Source of the DNA: Batrachochytrium dendrobatidis JAM81
Lineage: Eukaryota; Chytridiomycota; Chytridiomycetes; Rhizophydiales
Direction of reading: 5' to 3'
NCBI RefSeq assembly: GCF_000203795.2
Contig: NW_006281110.1
Coordinates: 335,854 to 399,853, forward strand
DNA length: 64,000 bases
In this document: in pieces, positions 125-20,557 of the stretch
Layout: each line of letters starts with the position of its first letter
Position numbering within the stretch: the stretch's first letter is position 1
Notes under the pieces: model-generated
The model's input: only the letters and a program-made list of their open reading frames with translations
Databases searched by the model: none
What the model was told of the DNA's origin: nothing
Program-made: the position numbers and the translations under genes

Positions 125-1518
125 ATGGGTCGTCCGTTTGTGTTGGATTGGGTTACGTCGGTTTACGATTCTTTAGACTCGCATAGCGAGTCTGTATTAC
201 CAACTGGTTCCCAACAAGGTTCCCGAGAGGGAACCCAACCAGGTTTTCAACAAGGTTTTCAACAAGGTTCCCAACTGGGTTTTCAAGAGGGATCCCAAGA
301 GGGATCCCAAAGTTTTCAACAAGGATCCCTATCGGGATCCGAATCCTTTCCTACTCACATCTGGTCTGACAACTCCAACCATCCCATCTACTCACCTCCT
401 CCTCATAATCTAACTTCCATTCGTCATCTCTTATCTGAAACTCGAAATCTCACCGTGGTCGACTTTAAAATGTATATTCATCTATTACTCGGTCGCATGA
501 CCATGTCTGCTAAAGAAGCCATCACTGAATTATTATGGTCAACTCTATCCCCACATCAACAACAGTTGTTTGCATTGCCTTACTTTGGAAATCGTTGGTC
601 TGATGATGAAATCTTACAAGGTTTGCAATCACCTTGGTTATCCAGAACTCAACAAATGCATTCTAATCGCGAATTGGCTCGAGTGGCTGCTACATCTCGT
701 CGAGGCTTGGATCCCACTTCTCATGATTCGACTGCTTTAAATTCACAACCTGCTCGTTCTTTTTCTGGCTCTGTCACTTCCTTCTTGAGAGGTAAGTCTT
801 TTTTTATTAGTCTTTTATCCACTAGAAATCTCATCTCAATATTATAGACGTGTCCATATCTGATAGACCTCCTCCGCGTCCATATGTACAAGTACCAACT
901 TTCAGCTCTGCTGAATCTACAGTTCGTCATGCTGCTATGCGTAATGTGTCCCCAACTTCCCCATCACGCTCTGCACCAGCTACCAACACTACCAGTCAAA
1001 ACATATCGACCTTCCTCTCTCCATCTGATCCCCCCTTTTTACCTTTTAATCGTCTAGATATAGGTAGATCACGTTCCATGGCTCTTGAAGATCAAGTCTT
1101 TGCTGTGTTGATCGAAGCCATTGTTCGCGCTGAACGCGCTGATAGAGCAAATGCTACCACCTCAACTGCAAATCCTTCCACTCTTGCCAGATTGCCTTCT
1201 GCTACTTCTCCCTCTACCCAACCAAGAGAAACTGACCCTTTGAATTCACTCTCTGTATATGGTATGCAACATCCAAGACTACCCTCTGCAACTCCCCCCA
1301 TCACTCCCGTTGCCGGTCTGATCCCTGGTCAGATTCTACCTACTGCCATACCCTCACTGTCTTCACTGGTTCCAAGAGTATTACAGGATACTTCCATCGT
1401 AATACGTCCATTAACTCGTACCCCTTTGACTGCACCCTTGGCTTCTGCCTCATCAACCTCTCCCATCGCATCAAATAGATCGACCGATGTGGATTCATCT
1501 GAAATTATCAGGCTATAA
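125..1518 (+). CDS. Hypothetical Gln/Gly/Ser-rich protein, two exons
   Basis: I do not recognise this protein. Exons 125-791 and 848-1518 join through a 56-bp GT-AG intron (split codon, phase 1) to give 445 residues. Residues about 27-75 are a degenerate tetrapeptide repeat of the type G-S/F-Q-x. Residues about 90-175 look like the only folded part: they contain a run of alternating hydrophobic and polar residues (LTSIRHLLSE, MYIHLLLGRM, EAITELLWSTL). The second half is Ser/Thr/Pro-rich and probably disordered. There is no signal peptide or membrane segment. The first ATG after an upstream stop was taken as the start. Its 3' end faces the 3' end of the oligopeptidase gene 295 bp away. It is probably a real gene, because the reading frame stays open across a well-formed intron, but function is unknown. 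Confidence 0.6.
203..350 (+). repeat. Degenerate 12-bp coding tandem repeat
   Basis: About twelve imperfect 12-bp units (consensus near GGTTTYCAACAA) run head to tail inside the hypothetical gene at 125-1518 and encode Gly-(Ser/Phe)-Gln-x tetrapeptides. Several units are near identical at the DNA level (for example around 241-275 and 289-310), so recent duplication is likely. Confidence 0.75.
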
Positions 1519-1812: not shown

Positions 1813-4800
1813 TTAAGCTAAAAGCCCCTTGGCTCGACGCTGAGTATCCATACATTCCACAAGGAATGCAAAATCACTGGCAACTTCCATGTATCGTGCA
1901 TAGCGACCAGAAACTCCAAAATGTCCCGCTCCCATCGTGCAGTGAAGCAGAATCTGAGTCTTGCCGCGGCATACATCAAGCGCACGCATCTTGGCTACCC
2001 ATTTCGCTGGCTCCCAGTATGCAACACGAGGATCATTCAATCCTGCTTTAACCAGTATATTCGGGAACTGCTTGTCAGAAGGAATGTTGTCATAGGGTGA
2101 ATAAGAACGCATATACTCAAAGTATTCCTTGTCGTTAGGGTTACCCCACTCCTCATACTCATTGATCGTCAACGGAATCGTAGGATCCATCATGGTATTG
2201 ATGACATCAACAAAAGGAACACCTGCAATCACAACATGCGCAATGTCTGGCTTCATATTCACCACTGCCCCCATCAACAATCCTCCAGCAGAACGCCCTT
2301 CAATCGACATGAGCTCGTGCTGAGTGTACTGAAGTTTAACCAGTTCTTGGCTGCATGCAATAAAATCTGTAAACGTATTTCGCTTGCTCTTGAATTTACC
2401 CGTCTCGTACCATGCCTTGCCGCAAGAACCACCACCGCGGATATGAGCAATCGCATAGACATAGCCACGGTCAAGAATCGGGAATTGAATAGCACTGTAT
2501 GCAGTAGGAATCGAAATACCATAACTACCATATCCATACAAATGCAAAGGGTTGGTACCATCCTTTTTGAACAGGTCCTTGCGGTACATGATCGATACAG
2601 GAATAGTTTCGGGTGTAGGAGTGTTAAAAGGCGCTTCTGTCTTGGTAGTCTCAGGAATAGGAACATAGATACGCTCAAGAGTGTACAACGAAGAATCAAA
2701 TTCACCAGGAACCTTGACTTCCTTGAGCTGGGTGCTTGTACCAGTCGCCATATCAAACTCCCATACTTGGCTAGGAATAAGCGGGGTAGATATTTCGTAT
2801 CTAACAGTGTTGGATTTTGTATTTTGATGGGACAATGAGTGCAAGTTTGCAGTATACAAGGCATGCTCAATAGCAATGGGGTCCAGTTTTCCTGTCAGTT
2901 TTCCGTTGGCAATAGGTGTAACAATGATCTTCTCAAAGCCGCCCACAATGGCTCGAATGACCAAGTAATCCTTAAACAATAACACATCTTGGATGTTACG
3001 GAAAGGATCATAAGGCGTCAGTTCAGTCCATGCAGATGCATCTGTGTTACTCTCGTGGCAGACCATTAGCGTGTTGTTGAGACACTTTCCACCCATATTC
3101 GTCATGATAACAAAATATTCCCCATGATCGGCAATAATGTACTTGTGTTTGTTCACTCTAGGCATAAAAGTCTTTAGCGCAGACCCCTCCTTGGTAAGAT
3201 CGATGTAGCTTACTTCAGAAGTCACTCCAGAAACAGCATAGATAAACAGGTAACGCGTAGTTTTGGATATGCCAACATTAAACTTGGAATCGGGTTCGTG
3301 GAACACCAAGCGAGGGATTTTGGACGCAGCACCGACCGTAAATGCTACAACATTGGCACTGAAAATCGCGTTTTCAAGCAATAACAATCAGCAATCATGA
3401 AAATGCATCTATACAAAGATGAGCTTGAGATATAAAGATACTTACGCTCGATCGATATCATCCAGAGTTGTCAAATAAACAGTCTTGCTATCATTGGCCC
3501 ACTCAATGGAAGAACCAAACTTTCCTTCAAGAGTTTCAGACGTGAGAGCCTTTCCGGTCTCGAGATCCTTGAAGAAAATAGTATAGTGCTCACTGCCAGT
3601 AGTGTCAAGTGCATAGGCAAGGGTCTGTGATAACCAAATAAATACTGTTAGATCATTACGGCAAGCGCTTCAAATCAGACAACGCTTCCAATACAGAGCA
3701 CTGTATTTCTGATATATACAATTAGAAAGTATATGGTGATTACCTTGTGATCAGGGCTTACGGAAACATCACCCATAAACTGATATTCAAATTCAAGTTT
3801 GTTCTGGTCAAGATAAACCTCTTCGACAGCATCAGCAGTATCCTTCTTACGCAAAAAGATACGATACTGCTGGCCTTGAACAACTTGACTATAATAGCTA
3901 TAGGGTGCTTTGTAAACAGGAACAGAGGAATCATTTTCGTTGATCTTGGCAATCATCTCTTTGTACAGAGTCTCACTCAAAGATTTGGTTTTATCGTAAT
4001 GGAAAGCTTTAGAGTAAGCGTTTTCAGCCTCTAAATACTCAATAATTTCTGGTTTCTTGTTTTTGGGAGACTGGTCTTTAAGCCAGTGATAATCATCGCT
4101 ATATTTAACTCCATGATATTCATGCTAATCATTGGATAGTTTAATTATAAAATGAGATGGTCAATTGATAAATATCTAAATACATGTCGCTGCTACACAT
4201 CAAATACTTGAAAGCAAATTAAATTAATATACCTGAATTGGAATCTTTTTTGCAACTGGAGGTTTTAATGCATCCAAAGTGGCAGCAGCTTTTGAACTTG
4301 CTAATGCAGGTTCTACGCCAGTCTCAGCAGCTGCAGATACAACAGTTTCGGTTGATTCTTTTTTCATACCAGGGATTGCAACACCAATAGCTGCCGCTGC
4401 AGCAGTCGCAGTTGCAGCTGCTGCAACACCAAGTCCAGCAATAACAGATTTATTTTCACCTTCGGGTTTAGCTCCCATGCCTGGAATCTTGACATATGCA
4501 ACAGCAGCCTTGATAGATTCGACTGTCTTTTCTGGAGCTGCAATTATATCGGCAACAATAGATTTGCTTTCACCTTCAGGCTTGGTTTCCATGCCTGGAA
4601 TCTTAACATCTGCAACAGCAGCCTTGATAGATTCGACTGTCTTTTCTGGAGCTGCAATTATATCGGCAACAATAGATTTGCTTTCGCCTTCAGGCTTGGC
4701 TCCCATACCTGGAATCTTGACATCTGCAACAGCAGCCTTGATAGATTCGACTGTCTTTTCTGGAGCTGCAATTATATCGGCAACAATAGATTTGCTTTCA

Positions 4801-5978
4801 CCTTCAGGCTTGGCTTCCATACCTGGAATCTTGACATCTGCAACAGCAGCCTTGATAGATTCGACTGCCTTTTCTGGAGCTGCAATTATATCGGTAACAA
4901 TAGATTTACTTTCGCCTTCAGGCTTGGCTTCCATGCCTGGAATCTTGACATCTGCAACAGCAGCCTTGATAGATTCGACTGTCTTTTCTGGAGCTGCCAT
5001 TATATCGGCAACAATAGATTTGCTTTCACCTTCGGGTTTAGCTCCCATACCAACAGCTGCCGCTGCAGCAGTCGCAGTTGCAGCAGCTGCAACACCAAGT
5101 CCAGCAATAACAGATTTATTTTCGCCTTCAGGCTTGGTTTCCATACCTGGAATCTTGACATCTGCAACAGCAGCCTTGATAGATTCGACTGTCTTTTCTG
5201 GAGCTGCAATTATATCGGCAACAATAGATTTGCTTTCGCCTTCAGGCTTGGCTTCCATACCTGGAATCTTGACATCTGCAACAGCAGCCTTGATAGATTC
5301 GACTGCTTTTTCTGGAGCTGCCATTATATCGGCAACAATAGATTTGCTTTCACCTTCGGGTTTAGCTCCCATACCAACAGCTGCCGCTGCAGCAGTCGCA
5401 GTTGCAGCTGCTGCAACACCAAGTCCAGCAATAACAGATTTATTTTCGCCTTCAGGCTTGGTTTCCATACCTGGAATCTTGACATCTGCAACAGCAGCCT
5501 TGATAGATTCGACTGTCTTTTCTGGAGCTGCAATTATATCGGCAACAATAGATTTGCTTTCACCTTCGGGTTTAGCTCCCATACCTGGAATCTTGACATC
5601 TGCAACAGCAGCCTTGATAGATTCGACTGCCTTTTCTGGAGCTGCAATTATATCGGCAACAATAGATTTGCTTTCGCCTTCAGGCTTGGTTTCCATGCCT
5701 GGAATCTTAACATCTGCAACAGCAGCCTTGATAGATTCGACTGCAGCAGCCGGGGTAGCAGTAGCGGAATCCAGCACGGCAGATGTGGAGTCAACAGCGC
5801 AAGAAACATCACCAGTTTTTGGAGCAGTATCAGCATCCAATGCAACAGTGGGTAATGAGTGGTTACTGGGGTGAGCAGGAGCAACTACAGAGGCGGCAAG
5901 AGCAGTAGTTGGTGATGTAGGGCCATCTCGATGTTTTTTACCGAAAACGGTCTTGACTTTGCTAAGGAAGCTCTTCAT
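1813..5978 (-). CDS. Oligopeptidase B (S9A serine peptidase) with a long repetitive N-terminal extension
   Basis: Four exons on the minus strand: 5978-4233, 4124-3744, 3624-3446 and 3358-1813. They sum to 3852 nt (1283 residues) with the frame kept throughout. Residues about 571-1283 are a full-length oligopeptidase B, a cytosolic peptidase that cleaves short peptides after Arg/Lys: N-terminal PPVAKKIPIQ, then DDYHWLKDQ, the beta-propeller, YGYGSYG, nucleophile Ser1125 in GRSAGG, Asp1211 in GLNDPRV and His1248 in GAGHFG. The Ser-Asp-His spacing matches the family. The PPVAKKIP start of the peptidase lies at the end of exon 1, so the extension and the enzyme form one gene. The extension starts with a basic amphipathic stretch (MKSFLSKVKTVFGKK), then an acidic linker, then ten 38-residue repeats (VESIKAAVADVKIPGM core) with three Ala-rich inserts. 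The start at 5978 was preferred to an in-frame ATG at 6350, whose product looks non-coding. Confidence 0.85.
4440..5745 (-). repeat. 114-bp coding tandem repeat array with poly-Ala modules
   Basis: Units of 114 bp (38 codons) are repeated about ten times with very high nucleotide identity. The distance from one copy of the AGTCGAATCTATCAAG segment to the next is exactly 114 bp where no insert is present. Two units carry the same extra block encoding ENKSVIAGLG plus an Ala/Thr run, and the same block recurs at the end of the array, giving a higher-order pattern. The array encodes the N-terminal extension of the oligopeptidase B gene. Confidence 0.9.
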
Positions 5979-6512
5979 TCGAGTAGAGAAAAGAAGAGAA
6001 GGACGGATAGCAACAGTGGTGGACTGTAGAGGATTAAGCAAGTGCGTACAGTAGATACGATTTGAATGCAAATGAGTGCGATAGATCCAACGAGGGCGGA
6101 GATTAGAAAATAAAAACCCCGACGATGGCAACTTGAAACAAACCCACAATGTATAAGGCGGAGCTACAAAAGATAAAGAATTCAGATAACGAATAACTGA
6201 CGAGTTTCTTGTAGAATAAAAGAAATCAGGAAAGAAAATGTTGGAGTAGAGATTCCAGATAGCCAAACCCGGAAAACTCGTAAATTTGATCGACGTTTGA
6301 ATCTGAGATTTGCAAGATTGTTGAGCGAGATCTGCAAGATTACAAGCCATTGTGTCCGTAGTGTGTGGCAGGGTTTTAGAGTTGAATGTTCATCTAAGCG
6401 TCTGGTTTATTTTGAGATCTTGGCAAGTCCATCTCATGTCACATCCGTTACCAATGAATCGCTCTTAAACTCTAGTTTGATCTTACTGTAAGACTTTATA
6501 CTGAATCATTTA
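5979..6512. other. Intergenic region between oligopeptidase B 5' end and KIF6 3' end
   Basis: This stretch should hold the promoter and leader of the oligopeptidase gene and the 3' region of the kinesin gene. An in-frame ATG at 6350 opens a 124-codon extension to the oligopeptidase frame, but its product is rich in Phe, Tyr, Leu and Ser without family resemblance. I treat it as non-coding. I see no clear TATA box or repeat. Confidence 0.4.
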
Positions 6513-9500
6513 TTACATGTCCGATCTATACTGTGATCTAGAAACCATTGCAAGTGGTGAGGATGTAGTAGACTCGAGTTGTGATCGAGAATGTGATGGT
6601 TGGAGTGGAGTGGATATACAAGTGCGACTGGATCCAGTCTTGAAAGCCTCGGCTACTCCTTGACGAGCACTGTAGAATGCTGCAATGTCATCCTGCAATC
6701 CGTCTCTATTACAATGCTGCTCATCCCTTAATGATTGCTTGTGACGCTCTTGTAGTAGAGACACATACTCACTGTTACCTTGCTCACCCAATACATGGCT
6801 GGGTTGCATTGACCTTTTGTATTGCACATCATGTTCTGGATCTCTCAATCGAAAGCTTTGCTTTCCCGCATGTCGAGCTGCTGTTCCGTTGCATTCATCA
6901 AGTGCTAAAGTGGACAATGGCAATGTCGAGATGCTGTTGTCTTGGTTAGACTGACGGCTTGAATTTCTAGATTGCTCTGGTCTTTCAAGGCTCATCGCTT
7001 GACGTTCTAGTGAATAAATCGACTGTCGATCTATAGGCGTGTTTCTTGAACGACTCGAGTCTCTGTTTAGCTTGTCTGTATATTCTACTGGTGAATACGA
7101 TTGCGTTAATAAATGGTTTTGAAAACTCCATGCTGATTTAGACGGCACATCCACCAAAGAGTGTCCGGATTTGAGTTGCTGAATCTGTCCTTGTGGTCGA
7201 CTCTGTGTGTTGTCTGGAATTAAAATAGTCGAGGTGGACATGGATGAAGGAGGTCGATCTGCATTAGTCTTTTGCTGTTCTGATGATAAAACTTGATGCA
7301 ACTTTCTATTTTCGTTGGTTTGAAATGGTCTATTTTCAGCGTGTAATGGATGGGATGGACTGTGCTTGGATTTGGCTTCCACAGCATAATCTGCCGCATC
7401 TGTCAACGATGCTCTCATTAGAGATTGTCTTGCAAGAGCTCCTGCAGCAGGGGCTGTCATGGGTCCATCATTTTGAAACATACTGGAATTAACACTTTTA
7501 GACTCGCTCATACTTGCTGGAGAATCCTGTTTTAAGCTAAATGAAGTCCTTGCACTAAAGTATACATTGATATACCAATGCTCAAAATCACGAGTCAAGC
7601 GATGGCGAGCTTGTTCTAAAAGATGCTGAAGATGTTCAATCTCCAATTTGAGATCCTTTAATTGTTGATAAGCTTGCTTGTACTTTTTTATATTTTCAGA
7701 TAAAAGTATACGCAGTGTATCTGCATCTCCATTGATTGGATTCTCCAGTTGCTCCTTCATTGATTCTACAAGAAACTTTTAATACCTCTCACAAAAATTC
7801 AAACTAGATAGGCTCAATCCATTACATTTATACTTACTAATGTTCGTTCGCAATGTATTGGCATGCTCTCCAAGAGATTTTGCTTCTGCATATTTCTCTT
7901 TTAAAACTGATTTTTGTCCATCAATCCACTCACTAGCTGGGTATTCGCGTCGAAAAATCTCAAACGCATTTGCCTTTTCTGTCGATAAACTTGGAATACT
8001 GGATGCTAGATCTGGATTCGAGTTCATCAGTTTACTCATGGATTGTACTAATGTATTCAAATTGATTCAAAATGTAAAAAACAAAACATGGTTAAACAAA
8101 TGCAATTCTATATTTTTAAACAATGTCAGGGTTAAAAGCATAAATGTACCTGTAGTGGTTGGCTTTGGAGTTCCTAGACATTCCAAAGTAGTATCTGTGC
8201 TGGATTGGTTCTGGATGGTTTTTTCCTTTATTGATGGCGTACTACCACACTTTTCCAATTGTGCCTTGAGTTGAGCAATCATTCCCACAAGAATATCTAA
8301 ACACAATGCATTATTAACGTCAAGCGCACATCGATATCAGTGCATTACATTTTGCATGGAAAAATAAATTTAGTTGAAAATTACTATACTTACTAATCTC
8401 ATTGTCGCGATGTGCTACTAAAACTTTTAGTTTTTCAAACTGCTGGATCTGCTCGGCATTGAGTCCTTGATCATTTATTGTCATATCCTTTAAATTCATT
8501 TCTGAAATTTCATTTCTAGTAGCAGAAGATACATCCAAGACTGAATTGTTTAAAGTGGAAGATTGGTTTGTCCCTTTGATGTATGATTTCAAAATATTGA
8601 ATGCATGCTGAATTTTTCGGAAATCTGTCATGATAATTGTTGCATCTGTAGAGTTGTTGGCAAGAAAATCGTCTACAGTTTGCTTTACCCTGAATGCATG
8701 CACGTTAACATGGGTAAATGTTGTCTTTGCATTATCAGTCAAGTAAACGAAATTAAAAATGTACCCACCTTTCTAACTCGTAGGATGGAAGCGTTTCGCC
8801 ATCATCTAATCCAGTTTCACCACGCGCAATTGCCAACTCGGCTTTCAATCGTGCAATTTCTTGCCTTAGCCGCTGTATTACTAACTGAGGATCCAATTCT
8901 TCATTAAGAGTTGCATTGTTGGAAATCAATGCCACGCGCTGTGCAAATCTACATGTAGATATAGATTCCTATATTATCAATCATGATGTTGATCATTCAT
9001 GGATTCATTAGATTCAATGTGAATTAGAATGTGCGGCATTCATAACTTGATATTAAAATTTATACTTGCATCAATCAATGGATCTTCGACAGCTACAGTA
9101 GCAATCATGGTTGTTTTGCAGTTTCCGCCAAGTGAGTCTCTTAACACACTTGTCATCATTGAATTTCGATAGGGAATATGTGATCGCTTTCCAAGAGAGT
9201 GTTCATGCAAGGCAACAATCACTTGCTCCAAGTAATGCAGCGATAGATTAATATGTTTAGCTTCCCGTAATAAAGCACCATCAATTCCTGTTCGTCCAAC
9301 TCGTTCAGATCTAAACGTTGTAATGGCAATAAGCGTTGAATTTATTATACCATCACTTGACCATTTAAAAATGCAATGCGCTTACCCAGCAAGATCAACT
9401 AAATGAAGTTTACTTTTTCGAATGACATCTTCTCCATTGACTCTTGTAGTCACACCAATAATAAATATGCAGTGACTTCGTGAGGATGAAGGATTGGAAG

Positions 9501-18222: not shown

Positions 18223-20557
18223 ATGTCAGAAGATACCCGCCAAAAAAAGAAACGAGACGAGCAGCACTTGAAGCTTATTCAGGAGATACTGGCTTTGCCA
18301 GATAATCAAAATTGTGCAGATTGTGGTGCTCGTGGTAGGAAATGACTGAAAATCTTGCTAAAGTATACTAAAATCATTGTCAAGTAGCCTGATTTACTTT
18401 GAATTTGGGTCCACGACATTTTATAGCTCCTCGCTGGACTTCGGTCAATATTGGCTGCTTTCTTTGTAAGCATACCAAACCATCACAATACAACTGTATA
18501 TAGTAATGATCTCATCATAATTTATTTTTATACCAAGGCATTCGTTGCGCTGGTCTTCATCGCAAACTCGGAACACATATAACCAAGATTAAATCCACGA
18601 CACTAGACACGTGGTCTGCTGAACAGATCGAGGTACTTTTGCTTTGTAATTTTGCATTATATATGCAAGAGTCAATGTACACCATCCGTGTGTATGTTCA
18701 TGCCAGATTGCCTGACCAAATCCATAATGAATGAAATTAGTTTGTTCGTAGCATGGGCAATCGCAAAGTGAATGAATACTATCTATCTCGACGAAATGCT
18801 CCCGTGTTTAATATCAATGATGATAGGTAGACAATGCATTTCTTCAAGATATATTATTTATGAGTGGATGAGTACTAACAGACTTTATTTAGGGAAATGG
18901 AAACATATCTTCGTCAAAAGTATGAAAAGAAATCTTATTGCGTCGATGGACCAGTAAGTTTCGATGTTTGATACTGCGTTGATCATACTACAATCCTGTT
19001 GTGCATACACTAATCCTGAGCTATATAGGATCCACAACAGCAACTAGTTCAACAAAAGAAACAAGCGCAACCCCAGAGCTTTGAAGTTCCTCTTCCATCA
19101 ACTCGAACAAAAACAGTCCAGTTTCTCGGGGCCAACACCAACAACGCGCTTGGATCAACTCAACAAAACCAACGTCAATCTATTGATGCCAATGATCAGC
19201 TAGTCCAACAGCTTCGGCAAATGGGTTTTGAAAATAATGAGCACAATCAAAGTGCGCTCATGATTACTGATCGCAACATCGACCAGGCAATTAGCTTACT
19301 GTTGGAATGGGGTAGTAACAGTCGCAAGGCATCCAATTCTTCTGCCAAGGATATACCTGCTGCTAATTCATCCAATTCAACAGTTAAAAGTATCAATAAC
19401 TCTCAAGCTCAAACTCAGTTGAATACTAATCATGCTGTTCCCAATGCATTAAAAAATGTCGATCTGCTTGGAGATTTGTTTGGAAACACTATCGAGAGTA
19501 CAATGACCACTTCACAATGGATGCCAAATCAGAATCTTGGTGGTCAAAATAATCCATTTGGATTTAGCTATCAGCTTGATCAGGGTCAAAATGAATCTAA
19601 CAGATATCAGTATAATCTTCAAGCTCAACAACATCAGGCACAGTTGTTACAAACTCAACAGGCTCAAATTCAAGCTCAGATTCAAGCTCAACAGAATCAA
19701 CAAAATCAGATTCAATATCAACAAGCCCAACAGAGTCAACAAGCTCAGATTCAAGCCCAACAGAATCAACAAAATCAGATTCAATATCAACAAGCCCAAC
19801 AAGCCCAACAAGCTCAGATTCAAGCCCAACAGAATCAACATAATCAGATTCAAGCCCAACAAAATCAACAAAACCAGATCCAAGCTCAACTTCAACAGCC
19901 TCAAAAAAGTCAAAGTCAGCAATCTCAAATGCAATCAAATCAAACTCAACTCCTGTTTAGCCAGATTCAATTTAATCCAGAGACTCAATTTCAACAACAG
20001 AATATGCAATCAGCATTTCAACCACTACAACCTCAATCAATTCAAGCTCCACAACAGCAATCAAAAAGTGTTGCAAAGAGCTCCATCATGTCTTTGTATG
20101 GACAGTCTCAGCCGATCCAGCAACAGTTTCAAGAATTCGAATTTTCCAATCAACAGCCTACAGGAACGTATGGTAACTATGGACAACAAACAACTCAGCC
20201 GCAACCTCAGAGCATTCTTGGTACTGTTCGCGTAAACCCTTACATTCAAAGCCAGCAGCAATCTCAGCAAATGCACTACCAACAACAGTCACAAGCAGGA
20301 CTTTCTTATGCAAATGTAAGTTGAAAATTTAACTTTTATGAAAACCAACTTGTAATGAACACGATAGCTGACATGTGTATACCCTAACACAATTATAGCC
20401 GTTCAATACAGCCAATATCCCACGTAGCGGAGCGGCTAATCAGACACAGGATTCCATGATGGGTGATTTATTTAAACCTCAATCTCAGCAGCCAGCACAT
20501 ATCATGCAGAATGCCAAACCCGATCTTTTTGCAGATCTTGCATTCATCAGAAAATAA
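18223..20557 (+). CDS. ArfGAP zinc-finger protein with UBA domain and Gln-rich tail (GTS1-like)
   Basis: Seven exons (18223-18334, 18427-18465, 18538-18632, 18741-18826, 18893-18953, 19029-20315, 20399-20557) give 612 residues in frame. Residues about 10-130 are an ArfGAP domain: CADCGARAPRW, then CIRCAGLHRKLGTHITKIKS completing the CX2C...CX2C zinc finger with the catalytic-type Arg, then LDTWSAEQIE and NRKVNEYYLSR. A UBA domain follows (QLVQQLRQMGFENN ... NIDQAISLLLE, about residues 185-225). The remainder is strongly Gln-rich, with QAQQNQQNQIQ-type repeats in the middle. ArfGAP plus UBA plus poly-Gln is the layout of yeast Gts1, so a role in Arf GTPase control and endocytic traffic is likely. 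The Gln-rich part has prion-like composition. Confidence 0.9.
19620..20075 (+). repeat. Gln-rich coding repeats
   Basis: Imperfect tandem CAA/CAG-rich repeats with a recurring 60-70 bp pattern (CARGCYCARATTCARGCYCA and AATCAACAAAATCAGATTCA) encode the low-complexity tail of the ArfGAP protein. Two neighbouring units around 19690-19750 and 19755-19815 are nearly identical. Confidence 0.8.

What the first reader, a model, noticed from the sequence alone, without database searches (positions are those of the whole stretch)
1813..5978. Oligopeptidase B fused to a 570-residue repetitive N-terminal domain
Seen directly: the last residues of the long repeat-encoding exon (PPVAKKIPIQ) are the conserved start of oligopeptidase B. 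The next exon continues with HEYHGVKYSDDYHWLK after a phase-0 GT-AG intron, and all four exons sum to an exact multiple of three. Known family members are about 690-730 residues long; I recall none with such an extension. Ten helical 38-residue repeats with poly-Ala spacers could anchor or cluster the enzyme, for example on a membrane or lipid surface, but that is inference.
Basis: partly seen in the sequence, partly recalled or inferred. Interest (0 to 1): 0.85.

Follow-up and report, generated by a model that had tools for sequence, protein, structure and literature searches.

The report
Oligopeptidase B with variable repeat tail
In the amphibian chytrid fungus Batrachochytrium dendrobatidis, an ordinary-looking peptide-cutting enzyme carries a long front tail of near-identical repeats that differ in number and sequence between gene models of the species; what the tail does is not known.

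Summary
Minus-strand exons 5978-4233, 4124-3744, 3624-3446 and 3358-1813 join to 1283 codons plus stop. The repeat exon ends, in frame, with the conserved start of oligopeptidase B (OPB), which exon 2 continues without a gap. The enzyme part keeps the Ser-Asp-His triad and the P1 Glu; a homologue with the same enzyme part is modelled like solved OPBs. The array has nine full 38-residue units (not ten), one partial unit and three 32-residue Ala-rich units. The organism is Batrachochytrium dendrobatidis. Two public gene models of that species already show the repeat-OPB protein, with five and four full units.

'Fusion' is doubtful: the two closest other relatives have 84- and 118-residue front tails without these repeats, and 14 of 18 OPBs with a locatable start begin within 2-19 residues. 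Simplest reading: an in-frame minisatellite grew inside a front tail of a canonical OPB. No homology between the tails could be shown. Helices are predicted only at very low confidence, and anchoring is untested. No transcript or protein data could be examined.

The parts
4233..5978 (-). Exon 1 (582 codons): N-terminal tail with repeats and first residues of OPB
5751..5978 (-). Non-repetitive head of the tail, residues 1-76, beginning MKSFLSKVKTVFGKK (basic, Ser/Thr/Ala-rich)
   Evidence: best codon-usage score of six frames (5978-5745) in the sense frame, +0.195
4482..5699 (-). Array residues 94-499: nine 38-aa units and two of the three 32-aa Ala-rich units
   Evidence: TRF 4438-5744 with partial edges
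5376..5471 (-). Ala-rich 32-aa unit 1 (residues 170-201)
5052..5147 (-). Ala-rich 32-aa unit 2 (residues 278-309)
4386..4481 (-). Ala-rich 32-aa unit 3 (residues 500-531)
4233..4265 (-). Conserved start of OPB (KPPVAKKIPIQ, residues 572-582) inside the repeat exon
   Evidence: aligned with solved OPBs from the first residue and with chytrid OPBs
4125..4232 (-). Intron 1, 108 nt, phase 0, in-frame TAA two codons in
3744..4124 (-). Exon 2 of the peptidase
3446..3624 (-). Exon 3
1813..3358 (-). Exon 4 with the alpha/beta-hydrolase domain; Pfam S9_N 573-982 and S9 1061-1273 over exons 1-4
2290..2292 (-). Catalytic Ser1125 (GRSAGG)
2158..2160 (-). Glu1169, in the place of SpOpB Glu576 (P1 specificity)
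   Evidence: role from PMC9917282 passages
2032..2034 (-). Catalytic Asp1211
   Evidence: alignment; residue number
1921..1923 (-). Catalytic His1248
   Evidence: alignment; residue number
5979..6350 (-). Upstream in-frame stretch used as coding in model P0002; more likely leader
   Evidence: codon score -0.069, still the highest of its six frames

Best explanation
One gene of Batrachochytrium dendrobatidis makes a canonical oligopeptidase B with a long N-terminal tail. A coding minisatellite (114-bp and 96-bp units, both multiples of three) grew and keeps turning over inside the tail by unit gain, loss and exchange, while the enzyme stays nearly unchanged. The enzyme part would cut small peptides after Lys or Arg (inferred from family and conserved residues). 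The tail hangs off the outside of the catalytic domain as a flexible, helix-prone chain that does not fold with it. It is tolerated at several lengths and works at most as a spacer or loose tether for whatever the basic N-terminus binds. Shown: the joined reading frame, the enzyme family and its active-site residues, array differences among three sequences of the species. Inferred: transcription and translation as one protein, the recombination mechanism, the tether role.
For: Joined frame and splice seam; OPB start in frame at the end of the repeat exon and seamless in alignments. Pfam S9_N 8.8e-75 and S9 2.9e-57; best PDB sequence match is OPB 7ywp at 3.6e-135. AlphaFold model of P0001, whose enzyme part is 100% identical to the window's: confident over the enzyme, below 50 over nearly all of the tail; overlays 7ywp with target TM 0.95. 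Array turnover: full 38-aa/32-aa units 9/3 in the window, 5/2 in P0002, 4/3 in P0001 plus a truncated first unit; of 9 distinct units in the window 4 are shared with P0002 and 1 with P0001, while the enzyme is 100% (P0001) and 94% identical (P0002, whose model also lacks 43 residues). Synonymous bias among units: 8 of 14 changes against 4.03 expected, P 0.010. Repeat found at one locus of the genome. Tails of 84 and 118 residues in the two nearest relatives.
Against: No RNA or protein data examined. One antisense frame shows the same synonymous count (8 of 14, P 0.029) and a positive codon score over the array. Tails of the relatives show no significant similarity to the window's tail (1835 of 2000 and 124 of 2000 shuffles at least as good at the N-terminus; 98 to 757 of 1000 for the units), so a common origin of the tails is by position only. 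Two other Rhizophydiales in the set, Globomyces and Gorgonomyces, start within 2 and 4 residues. P0001 begins inside a repeat unit. Array differences could partly be assembly errors; the differing unit sequences argue against that as the whole cause.
Confidence: 0.6

Rival explanations
1. The tail is a real functional membrane or organelle anchor: the basic N-terminus and/or the Ala-rich units insert in or lie on a membrane, and the array sets the distance of the enzyme from it.
For: No acidic residue in the first 17 residues; hydropathy peaks of 1.81, 1.81 and 1.84 over 19 residues at the three Ala-rich units; a 24-residue stretch of the 38-aa unit has a helical moment reached by 2% of shuffles, one of nine segments tested. 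Entophlyctis OPB also starts with a basic stretch.
Against: N-terminal moment not significant (0.093 in the window, 0.066 in Entophlyctis). A crude insertion energy is at best -0.02 for the last Ala-rich segment. Poly-Ala is a weak membrane segment (general knowledge). Low model confidence.
Confidence: 0.15
2. Two products share the locus: a separate repeat protein (intron 1 retained gives a stop after IQVY) and a shorter peptidase started at Met538 or from another promoter.
For: In-frame TAA directly after the exon-1 donor and an ORF that ends there; Met538 would give 746 residues.
Against: The OPB start is encoded in exon 1 in frame with the repeats and joins exon 2 seamlessly. Both public gene models join them, though as predictions these are not independent proof.
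Confidence: 0.12
3. The tail regulates the enzyme in cis, for example by offering Lys-containing linkers as pseudo-substrate to the active site.
For: 63 Lys/Arg in the tail; OPB accepts peptides up to 30 residues cut after basic residues (PMC3827171 abstract as shown in the listing).
Against: No contact of tail and enzyme is modelled with any confidence, and array length varies.
Confidence: 0.05
4. Assembly or annotation artefact: the array or the junction is wrongly assembled.
For: Tandem arrays are prone to misassembly (general knowledge); among 120 listed OPB relatives, six long ones carry unrelated Pfam domains and look like run-together models (not examined further).
Against: Three sequences of the species show the same junction with the same tail end; the junction is inside one exon.
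Confidence: 0.05

Closest known systems
Oligopeptidase B (peptidase family S9A), e.g. Serratia OpB 7YWP, Trypanosoma brucei OPB 4BP8/4BP9, Leishmania OPB 2XE4
   Same: Whole two-domain fold, triad, P1 Glu pair, N-terminal PPVAKK-like start
   Different: 571 further residues in front, mostly tandem repeats
Batrachochytrium dendrobatidis BDEG_27323 (P0002) and O5D80_001744 (P0001)
   Same: The same gene: repeat tail joined to the same OPB
   Different: 5 and 4 full 38-aa units instead of 9; P0002 starts at the upstream ATG and lacks 43 enzyme residues; P0001 starts inside a unit
OPBs of Entophlyctis helioformis (P0003) and of an unnamed ENA record (P0004)
   Same: Nearest other relatives, 59% and 55% identity, with front tails
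   Different: Tails of 84 and 118 residues, no 38-aa repeats, no significant similarity to this tail
Intragenic coding tandem repeats of fungi (adhesins and others; seen in listings only)
   Same: In-frame units that differ in number between sequences of one species
   Different: Here on a peptidase with no dibasic-rich processing sites in the tail (2 in 571 residues); no signal peptide was tested for

Membership tests
Oligopeptidase B (S9A) | S9_N beta-propeller plus S9 catalytic domain over full length | tested here: met
   Pfam 252.4 and 194 bits over cut-offs 24 and 22.6
Oligopeptidase B (S9A) | Catalytic Ser, Asp, His | tested here: met
   S1125, D1211, H1248; invariant in the 40-row alignment as S873, D959, H996 of P0001
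Oligopeptidase B (S9A) | Glu for basic P1 residue (SpOpB E576, TbOpB E607) | tested here: met
   E1169, with E1171 in the place of E578; role from passages of PMC9917282 and PMC3778648
Oligopeptidase B (S9A) | Closer to OPB than to prolyl endopeptidase | tested here: met
   Seven OPB sequences at 416-455 bits, the best prolyl endopeptidase 198.5 bits; eight OPB entries are the top eight folds
Oligopeptidase B (S9A) | NCBIfam equivalog NF007511 (oligopeptidase B) above its cut-off | tested here: inconclusive
   481.7 bits over nearly the full model but cut-off 1313; Entophlyctis and P0004 also fall below it
Oligopeptidase B (S9A) | Cleavage after Lys/Arg in small peptides | not testable with these tools
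   Needs an assay
Known repeat or lipid-binding helix families (for the tail) | Match to a Pfam or PDB family | tested here: not met
   DUF7514 passes its cut-off by summed score only, no stretch on its own; no PDB match at E 1
Membrane-anchored protein | Transmembrane or significantly amphipathic segment | tested here: inconclusive
   Hydropathy 1.81-1.84, crude energy about 0, N-terminal moment not significant

The most novel reading that the evidence does not exclude
A fast-evolving, length-variable helical array ties a conserved OPB to a membrane or other surface through alternating amphipathic and Ala-rich hydrophobic helices, so that strains of one fungus differ in how far and how densely they display an otherwise identical peptidase.
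Probability: 0.12. Interest if true: 0.6.

Novelty: new variant of a known kind. Interest (0 to 1): 0.35.

Why it matters
If the tail is made, this is an OPB of about 137 kDa (predicted) in a family of about 80 kDa, with a tail that differs between sequences of one amphibian pathogen while the enzyme does not. It would be a natural test of whether coding minisatellites on a conserved enzyme are tolerated noise or tune its placing, and the array could serve as a strain marker. If the tail is neutral, it is an ordinary intragenic repeat expansion.

Tried and rejected
Two joined genes: the repeat was sought in the window's genome and found at this locus only, 8 matches, all inside it (counts are lower bounds by the tool's note). 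Repeat relatives elsewhere: none among 7990 scored candidates of 320-1018 residues; this search had no positive control, because both Bd models lie outside that length range. No relative in viral contigs: 2 pattern matches, none confirmed. Known repeat family: only DUF7514 and weaker hits without a passing stretch of their own, plus RIP/P131 at E 0.057 with one stretch; NCBIfam LplB at 5.4e-4 below cut-off; taken as composition. Processed peptide repeats of the Kex2 kind: only two dibasic sites in the tail. Homology of the tail to those of Entophlyctis and P0004: not significant. Upstream start at 6350: codon score negative but the highest of its six frames; similarity of the upstream stretch to the P0004 N-terminus reached by 79 of 2000 shuffles; its start context (A at -3, G at +4) is better than that of 5978 (C at -3) by the recalled Kozak rule; but it lies only 163 bases from the upstream gene's stop (6513) against 535 for 5978. 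Left open, 5978 preferred. The bacterial promoter scan found nothing and does not apply to fungi. The proteomics paper PMC4457425 (passages) lists BDET_08575, a prolyl endopeptidase raised 9.3-fold by thyroid hormone; the genome has at least four other S9_N loci and I could not map that number to this gene. In print: searches listed no paper on this tail; only PMC4457425, PMC5567314, PMC9926174 and PMC3502224 were opened at passages.

Full report
What is there. On the minus strand, exons 5978-4233, 4124-3744, 3624-3446 and 3358-1813 join through three GT-AG introns into 3852 nt, 1283 codons and a stop. Exon 1 holds the tandem array (TRF 4438-5744, unit 114 bp). Parsed as protein it has a 76-residue head, a partial unit, nine 38-residue units, three 32-residue Ala-rich units and a 40-residue end piece before KPPVAKK. 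The last 11 codons of exon 1 are the start of OPB: the PDB alignment to Serratia OPB starts at this PP and runs gaplessly over the exon 1/exon 2 seam, as does the alignment with the chytrid relatives. The second Pro of this start is invariant in the 40 aligned rows.

Is it coding? Openness is a poor argument here, as two antisense frames over the array are open as well. Better evidence: among the nine full units, 14 of 114 columns vary, 9 of the 14 at third codon positions and 8 of 14 changes synonymous against 4.03 expected by position shuffles (P 0.010); but one antisense frame, which shares its wobble positions, also gives 8 of 14 (P 0.029). Codon usage learned from four other window ORFs favours the sense frame in the non-repetitive head (+0.195, the other five frames negative), in the array (+0.341, antisense frame +0.274) and in the end piece (+0.331, antisense frame +0.330). 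So head and OPB start settle the sense frame; the array alone does not.

What the enzyme is. Pfam S9_N and S9 cover residues 573-982 and 1061-1273. All seven OPB sequences in the PDB listing outscore every prolyl endopeptidase, 416-455 against at most 198.5 bits. Ser1125, Asp1211, His1248 and the P1 Glu1169 are kept (roles from passages of PMC9917282 and PMC3778648). An AlphaFold model was made of P0001, whose enzyme part is 100% identical to the window's, with a 40-row alignment. It is confident over the enzyme, with pLDDT below 50 over residues 1-4, 6-161 and 173-314, and overlays closed Serratia OPB with target TM 0.95. The NCBIfam OPB equivalog model matches at 481.7 bits, below its cut-off of 1313, as do the OPBs of Entophlyctis and P0004; I read that cut-off as set for close bacterial relatives.

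Whose gene. The best hits are O5D80_001744 and BDEG_27323 of Batrachochytrium dendrobatidis. Both models already join repeats and OPB. The window lies in a genome of 23.49 Mb in 33 contigs. The arrays differ: full 38-aa/32-aa units 9/3 in the window, 5/2 in BDEG_27323, 4/3 in O5D80_001744 plus a truncated first unit. Of nine distinct units in the window four recur in BDEG_27323 and one in O5D80_001744. The enzyme part is 100% identical to O5D80_001744 and 94% to BDEG_27323, where the model also skips 43 residues. The array thus changes much faster than the enzyme, unless assembly errors explain part of it.

Origin of the tail. Of 44 relatives examined for the start motif, 18 had it in the strict form. 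Among these 18 are the two Bd models, Entophlyctis with 84 residues in front and P0004 with 118, and 14 others with 2-19; 12 of the 44 matched only a looser, later motif and 14 neither. A figure legend passage of PMC9926174 names Bd, Hp and Eh as the closest relatives of Bsal, although NCBI files Entophlyctis helioformis under Chytridiales. Globomyces and Gorgonomyces, which NCBI files under Rhizophydiales like Batrachochytrium, start within 2 and 4 residues. So tails appear in the nearest relatives and not throughout the order. No significant similarity links these tails to the window's; that they are one old tail is an inference from position.

What the tail does. The single-sequence model of exon 1 has mean pLDDT 35.9. 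The P0001 model draws one helix of 23-25 residues per unit, at pLDDT around or below 50. A 24-residue stretch of the 38-aa unit has a helical moment reached by 2% of shuffles, one of nine segments tested; the N-terminal 18 residues are basic but not significantly amphipathic (0.093; Entophlyctis 0.066). The Ala-rich units peak at hydropathy 1.81-1.84, with a crude insertion energy of -0.02 at best. I therefore commit to a flexible, helix-prone spacer that is tolerated at several lengths, perhaps a loose tether (0.6 for the whole reading, the tether role being its weakest step). Anchoring stays possible (0.15).

Start codon. ATG 5978 gives 1283 residues. ATG 6350, in frame, is used by BDEG_27323, has the better start context by recalled rules (sequence), and its stretch has a negative codon score that is nevertheless the highest of its six frames. 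It lies 163 bases from the stop of the upstream same-strand ORF at 6513, which has a KIF9-type domain. I prefer 5978 without proof.

Verdict. Real feature, correctly seen; canonical enzyme with an unusual, fast-changing tail; already present in databases as hypothetical proteins and, in the searches made, not described in a listed paper. Function of the tail unproven.

Noticed in passing
L037 (G000:C21:1215500-1220500): A second OPB-like gene in the same genome: GRSAGG, a split EWGNPND motif and a long non-repetitive stretch before the S9_N start. Summed tblastn bits are higher with a bacterial OPB (P0127, 549) than with the window's enzyme (388).
   Followed up: partly
window 3085-3213, minus strand: The BDEG_27323 model skips 129 nt here (GT-AG, in frame) that encode 43 residues aligned with other OPBs: a wrong intron call or an alternatively spliced exonic intron.
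   Followed up: partly
window 4237-5874, plus strand: An antisense frame of 545 codons is open over the array, a by-product of units free of stops in that frame; a second antisense frame is open at 4356-5855.
   Followed up: partly
window 19029-20324, plus strand: ORF with a UBA domain followed by a long Gln-rich tandem repeat.
   Followed up: no
window 200-340, plus strand: Short Gln/Gly/Ser-rich tandem repeat in ORF 119-847, with a sub-threshold Yae1_N match.
   Followed up: no
G000 C9, C11, C27: Three further loci with S9_N matches beside C4 and C21.
   Followed up: no
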